This document shows, one piece after another, positions 59,585 to 59,962 of a DNA stretch of 64,000 nt (the first letter of the stretch is position 1; each line of letters opens with the position of its first letter). Made by a program: the position numbers and the translations under genes. Location: the NCBI RefSeq assembly GCF_003946395.1, contig NZ_RHNZ01000001.1, positions 62,001-126,000 on the forward strand. Direction: 5' to 3'. Under the pieces are notes generated by a model. The model ran no database searches, had not been told where the DNA came from, and was given only the letters and a program-made list of their open reading frames with translations. Origin of the DNA: Levilactobacillus fuyuanensis. GTDB lineage: Bacteria > Bacillota > Bacilli > Lactobacillales > Lactobacillaceae.

Positions 59585-59796
59585 GTACGGGTTACTTGCC
59601 GGGCGACGTAAATGGCCCGTGACGCTGTGGGCGGACGCCCGGAGCCAAAGAACGGTCTCCAGGCTTGTGGTCGAACCTCTAAGAATCGAGTTTCAACCAC
59701 ACCAATTCTCTAAGCGGTACAATCCACCGCTAAGAAAATTCCCACGGCTTGGTCCATTTACGTCGCCCTCACGGCTTACATTGGCTTAACCCGTAC
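59585..59796 (-). ncRNA. Candidate structured leader RNA, multi-helix junction
   Basis: On the minus strand the ends pair: GTACGGGTT (59788-59796) with AACCCGTAC (59585-59593), 9/9. Then GGGCGACGTAAATGG (59754-59768) pairs with its exact complement (59601-59615), 15/15, and GTGGG/CCCAC (59741-59745 with 59627-59631) follows. Inside are three hairpins: 59726-59740 with 59704-59718 (14/15), 59688-59700 with 59667-59679 (12/13) and 59657-59664 with 59637-59644 (8/8, one G-U). About 63 base pairs lie in 212 nt. The fold ends 5-10 nt before the ribosome binding site of the phosphatase gene. No known riboswitch or T-box motif set was recognised. Confidence 0.65.
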
Positions 59797-59934: not shown

Positions 59935-59962
59935 ATTATGCCAGTTTTCAGGTGATTTTCAA
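59935..59962 (-). promoter_or_regulatory. Promoter for the structured leader and phosphatase-TPR-recD2
   Basis: Minus strand TTGAAA, a 16-bp spacer and an extended TGG-CATAAT. Transcription from here gives a leader of about 370 nt that also contains hairpins TGCCA/TGGCA plus GTATC/GATAC (59854-59900). Confidence 0.6.

What the first reader, a model, noticed from the sequence alone, without database searches (positions are those of the whole stretch)
59585..59796. Large multi-helix RNA fold directly before a ribosome binding site
A 9-bp and a 15-bp perfect long-range helix enclose a junction with three strong hairpins, about 63 base pairs in 212 nt, ending just before the ribosome binding site of the phosphatase-TPR-recD2 unit. 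A promoter 140 nt further upstream adds another hairpin. It does not match the motifs of T-box, TPP, FMN, SAM, lysine, cobalamin, RNase P, tmRNA or SRP RNA that I know. It could be a new cis-regulatory RNA, a riboswitch for a phosphorylated metabolite, or a stand-alone RNA.
Basis: partly seen in the sequence, partly recalled or inferred. Interest (0 to 1): 0.85.

Follow-up and report, generated by a model that had tools for sequence, protein, structure and literature searches.

The report
Abundant folded repeat in lactobacilli
The folded RNA in front of this gene is real, but it is one of roughly two hundred related copies scattered between the genes of this Levilactobacillus genome, so it looks like a new family of structured repeats rather than a switch for one gene.

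Summary
The fold is real. On the gene (minus) strand it folds at -114 kcal/mol, z -9.6, and no Rfam family reaches its threshold. It is not a leader specific to the phosphatase gene. It is one copy of a dispersed family: at least 61 type A copies and at least 135 related type B copies in this 2.7-Mb genome, with matches in 33 of 35 genomes of the genus, Levilactobacillus. Covariation is strong (98.3% of pair cells paired, 35 of 65 pairs with double changes, 0 of 500 shuffles as good). At the mnmA-phosphatase gap the extended -10 is found in 27 of 28 sequences. A copy is detected in only 14: upstream of that -10 in 8, downstream in 6, in either orientation. Copies point their 3' end at the nearest gene (44 of 49); neighbouring copies are mostly divergent (28 of 32). 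Their flanks are copy-specifically complementary. Orthologous copies keep pairing to the same degree whether sense or antisense to the neighbouring gene. Best reading: a non-autonomous structured repeat, maintained and exchanged by an unknown mechanism. Any effect on this gene is probably secondary.

The parts
59592..59780 (-). type A repeat core (189 nt), AGCCGTGAGGG ... GGCAAG
   Evidence: 209 bits with model R1 (R1 was built from 23 copies including this one); best DNA match elsewhere in the genome 83% identical
59787..59796 (-). 5' arm of the outer stem, GTACGGGTTA
   Evidence: perfect complement of 59594-59585; across the family the arms pair in a copy-specific way
59585..59594 (-). 3' arm of the outer stem, TAACCCGTAC; 12 nt of the usual spacer are missing compared with L. 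parabrevis
59754..59768 (-). 5' strand of the 15-bp helix
   Evidence: helix 2 of the family has 10 of 16 pairs with double changes
59601..59615 (-). 3' strand of the 15-bp helix
59704..59740 (-). hairpin 1 (CTTAG ... CTTAG with a U.U mismatch in the family)
   Evidence: helix 5: 8 of 14 pairs with double changes; boundaries read
59666..59701 (-). hairpin 2 (GAAACTC ... GAGGTTC)
   Evidence: helix 6: 8 of 12 pairs with double changes; boundaries read
59637..59664 (-). hairpin 3 with a conserved short loop (GACCG-yTCTT-TGGCT)
   Evidence: helix 7: 5 of 11 pairs with double changes; a like hairpin is seen in type B
59935..59962 (-). promoter-like site of the phosphatase unit, TTGAAA ... TGGCATAAT
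   Evidence: extended -10 pattern found in 27 of 28 Levilactobacillus sequences
   Evidence: ORF list; start read

Best explanation
The feature is one copy of a large family of dispersed intergenic repeats. Each has an approximately 190-nt folded core, closed by an outer stem whose sequence differs from locus to locus. Two related types, A and B, occur alone or as divergent pairs between genes. The most likely mode of action is that of a non-autonomous, structure-dependent mobile or recombining element. The folded plus strand of the element (as RNA or as single-stranded DNA; not distinguished here) is what some trans-acting factor recognises. Copies are gained, lost, replaced by other family members at the same site and sometimes inverted as a pair. 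They end up with the 3' end towards the nearest gene. At this locus the copy sits behind the gene's promoter, so it should be part of the mRNA and may alter its stability or translation, but that is a by-product of its place. Shown: family, copy number, covariation, placement, locus-specific complementary arms, differences at the same site between species. Inferred: mobility, recognition of the fold, any effect on expression. Not identified: the factor that moves or maintains it.
For: Copy number and range. Covariation: 35 of 65 pairs with double changes, covariation score 0.374 against 0.157 in shuffles, 0 of 500. Not tied to the gene. Place: 3' end nearer to a gene than the 5' end in 44 of 49 copies of 393 kb contiguous sequence (counted by hand, own gene calls); 28 of 32 neighbouring pairs divergent, none convergent. 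Arms: 44 of 105 copies pair with their own flank better than the 99th percentile of mismatched flanks; 33 of 105 do so over 35 nt or more, against 3 of 628 mismatched. Turnover: of 36 L. parabrevis copies with a comparable site here, 21 keep the core at 90-97%, 8 have the same type but only 74-84% identity, 5 have the other type, and 2 have degenerate copies. In closer species pairs some copies are not detected in the sister species, and one pair unit lies in opposite orientation at the same site (L098 versus L099 and L093). Constraint: core identity median 94.7% against 83.3% for the 5' flank at 17 orthologous A sites.
Against: No transposase or reverse transcriptase was linked to it: Y1 transposases are in 23 of 35 genomes and reverse transcriptases in 10 of 35, and neither tracks copy presence. 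No target-site duplication or clean empty site was resolved; by eye several sites without a copy hold end remnants, so loss is better shown than gain. No two of the 61 A or 60 B copies compared are 95% identical or more; the closest are 91.5%, so there is no sign of recent spread in this genome. Pairing kept at static sites is more than expected of dead transposon copies and hints at host function. The comparison of 36 sites is biased towards occupied sites, because most stretches of this genome were fetched around known copies.
Confidence: 0.58

Rival explanations
1. A host-useful structural module spread over many transcription units: an insulator or stabiliser at the edges of genes, selected copy by copy, that duplicates now and then.
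For: Orthologous cores are more conserved than the 5' flank (94.7% against 83.3%; the sites were chosen as those with at least 89% core identity). Of one-sided pair changes 40 of 70 keep a standard pair, against 27% for random changes. Type A is mostly upstream of gene starts (43 of 61) and type B mostly beyond gene ends (37 of 60) (Fisher p 0.0005). No near-identical copies that would show recent spread.
Against: Pairing is kept to the same degree in copies antisense to the neighbouring gene (A: 25 of 43 sense, 15 of 27 antisense). Promoter-like sites upstream of copies show at most a mild forward excess for sense A copies (13 against 8 of 41; strong ones 7 against 3) and no clear one for the other groups; for A copies facing a start they are as common between copy and gene (14 of 33). 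14 of 28 orthologous gaps lack a detected copy. The 27% figure assumes half transitions; against A-C mismatches alone the excess is weaker (49 kept to 22, p 0.002).
Confidence: 0.32
2. A riboswitch or cis-regulator of the phosphatase-TPR-recD2 unit.
For: In this genome it lies between a conserved promoter and the ribosome binding site, is very stable and is present at the same place in L. parabrevis and in a close MAG.
Against: At least 195 further copies elsewhere in the genome; 14 of 28 orthologous gaps without a detected copy; 8 of 14 copies upstream of the -10; both orientations. No Rfam class.
Confidence: 0.03
3. A stand-alone small RNA gene such as a 6S RNA variant.
For: Size and long closed helix resemble 6S RNA (by recall); the genome's 6S match is below Rfam's cut-off (34.4 bits).
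Against: The 6S match, over the whole model, lies elsewhere (C54). A simple scan finds no terminator after the element, though that scan also missed the terminator-like site after mnmA that one search finds. Multi-copy nature.
Confidence: 0.03

Closest known systems
REP/REPIN elements with RAYT (PMC3116915 and PMC8049555: search listing with start of abstract; PMC3733652: start of abstract in a listing, and passages)
   Same: Short, intergenic, high copy number, structured, often in pairs of opposite orientation.
   Different: REPs are 20-40 bp; here the unit is about 190 nt with a three-hairpin junction and heavy covariation. Y1 transposases do not track the copies.
bcr1, BOX, RUP and similar stem-loop repeat families (PMC2267715: outline with abstract, and passages)
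   Same: Interspersed structured repeats, intergenic, tens to hundreds of copies.
   Different: In the passages I read, Lactobacillus appears only with Lac-1 of L. johnsonii, located inside genes. I did not compare sequences with these families beyond the Rfam search.
MITEs (by recall; PMC10969869 seen in a listing only)
   Same: Non-autonomous, small, inverted ends, can lie in leaders.
   Different: The inverted ends here differ between loci instead of being shared terminal repeats, and no target duplication was resolved.
Riboswitch and other cis-regulatory RNA families
   Same: Variable closing stem, conserved junction, leader position in this genome.
   Different: Not tied to one gap, promoter side or orientation; pairing kept equally in antisense position.

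Membership tests
Any Rfam 15 family | score at or above the gathering threshold | tested here: not met
   0 matches in the window; only sub-threshold matches near the element and near an A-B pair elsewhere (L193)
6S RNA (RF00013) | covariance model match at this place | tested here: not met
   The only match in the genome at E <= 0.001 is on C54, 34.4 bits
REP/REPIN with RAYT | copies accompanied by a Y1 transposase (PF01797) | tested here: not met
   Y1 in 23 of 35 genomes; absent in some copy-rich genomes (e.g. G018, G020, G029) and present in G011 and G024, where R1 finds no copy
REP/REPIN with RAYT | inverted pairs of the unit | tested here: met
   28 of 32 neighbouring pairs divergent
MITE | terminal inverted repeats shared by all copies | tested here: not met
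   Arms pair but their sequence is barely conserved beyond about 10-15 nt
MITE | target-site duplication at an empty site | tested here: inconclusive
   Sites compared between species show divergence or remnants, no clean duplication
Reverse-transcribed element (retron-like) | reverse transcriptase in the genome | tested here: not met
   0 PF00078 matches in this genome; 10 of 35 genus genomes have one
Riboswitch | conserved association with one gene or promoter | tested here: not met
   gene functions of the other neighbours were not identified
Riboswitch | ligand binding | not testable with these tools
   needs in-line probing

The most novel reading that the evidence does not exclude
A new class of mobile DNA in lactobacilli: an approximately 190-nt element recognised through the fold of one strand, without a known transposase. 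On insertion it acquires a 5' arm that is an inverted copy of the downstream target (outer complementarity of up to about 95 nt). It tends to build divergent A/B pairs between genes, and can exchange its core or flip the pair in place.
Probability: 0.28. Interest if true: 0.82.

Novelty: new variant of a known kind. Interest (0 to 1): 0.62.

Why it matters
At least 196 structured copies (about 37 kb of core sequence at about 189 nt each) in a 2.7-Mb genome is a large non-coding investment that Rfam does not list and that my paper searches did not find. It changes how intergenic regions of Levilactobacillus should be read, because leaders and gene ends are interrupted by it. If the inverted copying of the flank or the flipping is confirmed, it points to an undescribed way of moving or exchanging DNA.

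Tried and rejected
Rfam at gathering and at permissive thresholds: nothing convincing. 6S RNA: elsewhere. Plasmid collection, blastn: no match. Y1 transposase and reverse transcriptase as partner: no correlation. Promoter just upstream of every copy (stand-alone RNA): at the looser cut-off forward 13 against reverse 8 of 41 for sense A copies, 4 against 7 of 17 for antisense A, 7 against 6 of 22 for sense B, 8 against 14 of 34 for antisense B; no general support. Conserved composite with a fixed middle: the middles of pairs are not alike. Long inverted copy of the flank as a general rule: beyond 30 nt it is significant only for type B (8 of 5000 permutations at least as good) and not for type A (1929 of 5000); beyond 50 nt for neither. 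One strong-looking case (L195:8505) is probably a remnant of another copy. Arm against the other species' flank at 14 replaced sites: significant (1 and 0 of 10000), but partly because the arms are conserved at several of them. The L042/L219 insertion looked like an inverted copy of the flank, but part of the match can be explained by pairing with the older neighbouring copy. Recent spread: no copies 95% alike. Paper searches gave no description of this family in Lactobacillus; papers opened: PMC2267715 (outline and passages), PMC3733652 (passages), PMC5217627 (one passage); all others seen in listings only.

Full report
Observation. The window region 59585-59796 folds as described. On the minus strand, which is the gene strand, the minimum-free-energy structure has 78 pairs and -114.1 kcal/mol, against a shuffle mean of -68.6 (z -9.60, 0 of 200). 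The outer 10-bp and the inner 15-bp helices are exact. A promoter-like site lies about 139 nt upstream, and a Shine-Dalgarno-like stretch and TTG start follow directly. No Rfam family reaches its threshold in the window, and nothing convincing appears at permissive thresholds.

A repeat, not a single leader. A DNA search of the same genus found 22 matches in the own genome (75 candidates, 21 scored) and matches in 22 of 35 genomes. An alignment of 23 own-genome copies (A1) gives a consensus of 65 pairs. With a covariance model from it (R1), the own genome has 131 matches at E <= 0.001 with 150 of 916 candidates scored: 61 at 111 bits or more (type A), then a second group from 82.5 bits down; one search adds one at 92.2. 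Aligning 47 of that second group shows a related family, type B, with the same ground plan. A model of B (R2) finds 149 matches with 150 of 771 candidates scored, 135 of them at 94.9 bits or more, so both counts are lower bounds. R1 matches 33 of 35 genus genomes and 71 of 301 genomes drawn from the family, in 11 of 40 genera (E <= 1e-5, stricter filters). R2 matches 5 of 246 genomes drawn from the order at E <= 1e-8, this genome and four of the same family. The genus is Levilactobacillus. In the 64-kb window only this one copy is found.

Structure is selected. In A1, 98.3% of cells form standard pairs, 35 of 65 pairs have double changes, and the covariation score is 0.374 against 0.157 +/- 0.008 in shuffles, 0 of 500 as high; sliding the partners destroys the signal. 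The 23 copies were the best DNA matches, and the structure was derived from them. A second look uses orthologous copies in L. parabrevis (G019). At 17 A sites with at least 89% core identity, median core identity is 94.7%, against 83.3% for the 5' flank 45-165 nt away and 97.3% for the 3' flank towards the gene. One-sided pair changes keep a standard pair in 40 of 70 cases (27% expected for random changes with half transitions), and double changes in 13 of 16. By context, A copies whose 3' neighbour is on the same strand keep 25 of 43 and antisense A copies 15 of 27; the four B sites give 5 of 10 (three antisense sites) and 4 of 5 (context unknown). Counting only kept pairs against A-C mismatches gives 49 to 22, p 0.002. 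G-U exceeds A-C on the element's own strand in both contexts (A 197 to 23 and 62 to 17; B 74 to 5 and 113 to 23), less so in antisense copies (p 0.02 and 0.03); columns where G-U is the consensus add to these counts.

Place and arrangement. In 393 kb of contiguous sequence, 36 of 134 intergenic gaps of 220 nt or more are occupied, and in 44 of 49 copies the 3' end is nearer to a gene than the 5' end (own gene calls in which ORFs overlapping copies were set aside, counted by hand). In the 121 copies examined, the median distance from the 3' end to a gene start is 86 nt (A) and 112 nt (B), and to a gene end 22.5 nt (A) and 41 nt (B). Neighbouring copies within 700 nt are divergent in 28 of 32 own-genome pairs (3 tandem in one direction, 1 in the other, none convergent); 14 of 14 pairs in the named species are divergent. 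A copies mostly face a start (43 of 61), B copies mostly a stop (37 of 60).

Locus-specific arms. The flanks outside the core pair with each other in a copy-specific way: mean duplex energy -28.6 against -21.4 kcal/mol for mismatched flanks, 0 of 20000 permutations, 23 copies. Anchored alignment finds 44 of 105 copies above the 99th percentile of mismatched flanks, 33 of 105 over at least 35 nt (3 of 628 mismatched), and the strongest case over about 95 nt at L162:1481. Beyond 30 nt the signal is significant for B only.

The phosphatase locus in relatives. In 27 Levilactobacillus sequences plus the window, the extended -10 of the phosphatase promoter is found in 27 of 28. A copy was detected in 14 of 28: downstream of the -10 in 6 (window, L079, L103, L086, L087, L088) and upstream of it in 8 (L081, L082, L083, L084, L091, L093, L098, L099), in both orientations and both types. 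This is not what a riboswitch of the unit would show. Between this genome and L. parabrevis the outer stem is largely shared while the core is only 79% identical.

Turnover. Of 43 rows of L. parabrevis copies, 7 (6 copies) had no comparable site in the sequence held. Of the other 36, 21 keep the core (90-97%), 8 have the same type at 74-84%, 5 have the other type, and 2 show no model match but degenerate copies on inspection. This comparison is biased towards occupied sites, because most stretches were fetched around copies. In six A sites with divergent cores, 75 of 107 changed pairs are double changes that keep pairing, which fits replacement by another family member better than stepwise drift. 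Among closer species pairs, some copies are not detected in the sister species (L087:4415 against L088, L081:5476 against L082, L082:1152 against L081, L098:14071 against L099), and a pair present in L093 and L099 is missing in L098; by eye the L098 site and the L081 site opposite L082:1152 hold end remnants, so loss is better shown than gain. Another pair unit of about 500 nt lies inverted in L098 relative to L099 and L093 while its flanks are collinear; its B core is closest to the B of the same site in L099, its A core is not closest to the A of that site. No two copies here are 95% alike; the closest are 91.5% (61 A and 60 B compared within type).

Mechanism. The best reading is a non-autonomous element whose folded strand is recognised in trans and which is gained, lost and exchanged; its presence in this leader is then incidental. 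Mobility is inferred from differences at sites, not from a clean insertion: no target duplication was resolved, and Y1 transposases and reverse transcriptases do not track the copies. Promoter scans give no general support that copies are transcribed from just upstream, so RNA and single-stranded DNA remain undistinguished.

Novelty. Rfam 15 gives no match. In the open-access library, searches gave no description of such a family in Lactobacillus; the passages of the survey PMC2267715 that I read list for L. johnsonii only Lac-1, which lies inside genes. Most subscription literature is not in that library. As a kind, interspersed structured repeats are known (REP, BOX, bcr1), so I rate this a new variant of a known kind.

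Noticed in passing
L001 (G000:C54:41843-42034): The genome's 6S RNA match scores only 34.4 bits, below Rfam's cut-off of 46.4, although it covers the whole model: 6S RNA may be under-called in such genomes.
   Followed up: no
window 59935-59962 and L079-L105: The extended -10 of the phosphatase promoter (TGGCATAAT) is found in 27 of 28 sequences while the leader behind it changes freely.
   Followed up: partly
L098:3037-3499 versus L099:342-812 and L093:246-688: A whole A-B pair unit of about 500 nt lies in opposite orientation at the same site in related species, with inverted end remnants near it by eye, as if it could flip.
   Followed up: partly
L111-L113 (Furfurilactobacillus), L150 (Lapidilactobacillus), L123, L125, L129, L143 (Lacticaseibacillus): Related, mostly weaker matches in other genera, up to 113.5 bits with model R2; the family may be larger and more diverse than types A and B.
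   Followed up: no
hairpin 1 of both types (window 59704-59740; A1 columns 51 and 71): A nearly invariant U.U mismatch inside CTTAG/CTTAG of type A seems to have a counterpart in type B (read) and may be a protein or tertiary contact.
   Followed up: no
L163:5605-5861, L038:1766-1954, L042:1744-1932: Tandem copies and remnants, including a B followed by what looks like an A end, suggest repeated insertion next to older copies.
   Followed up: partly
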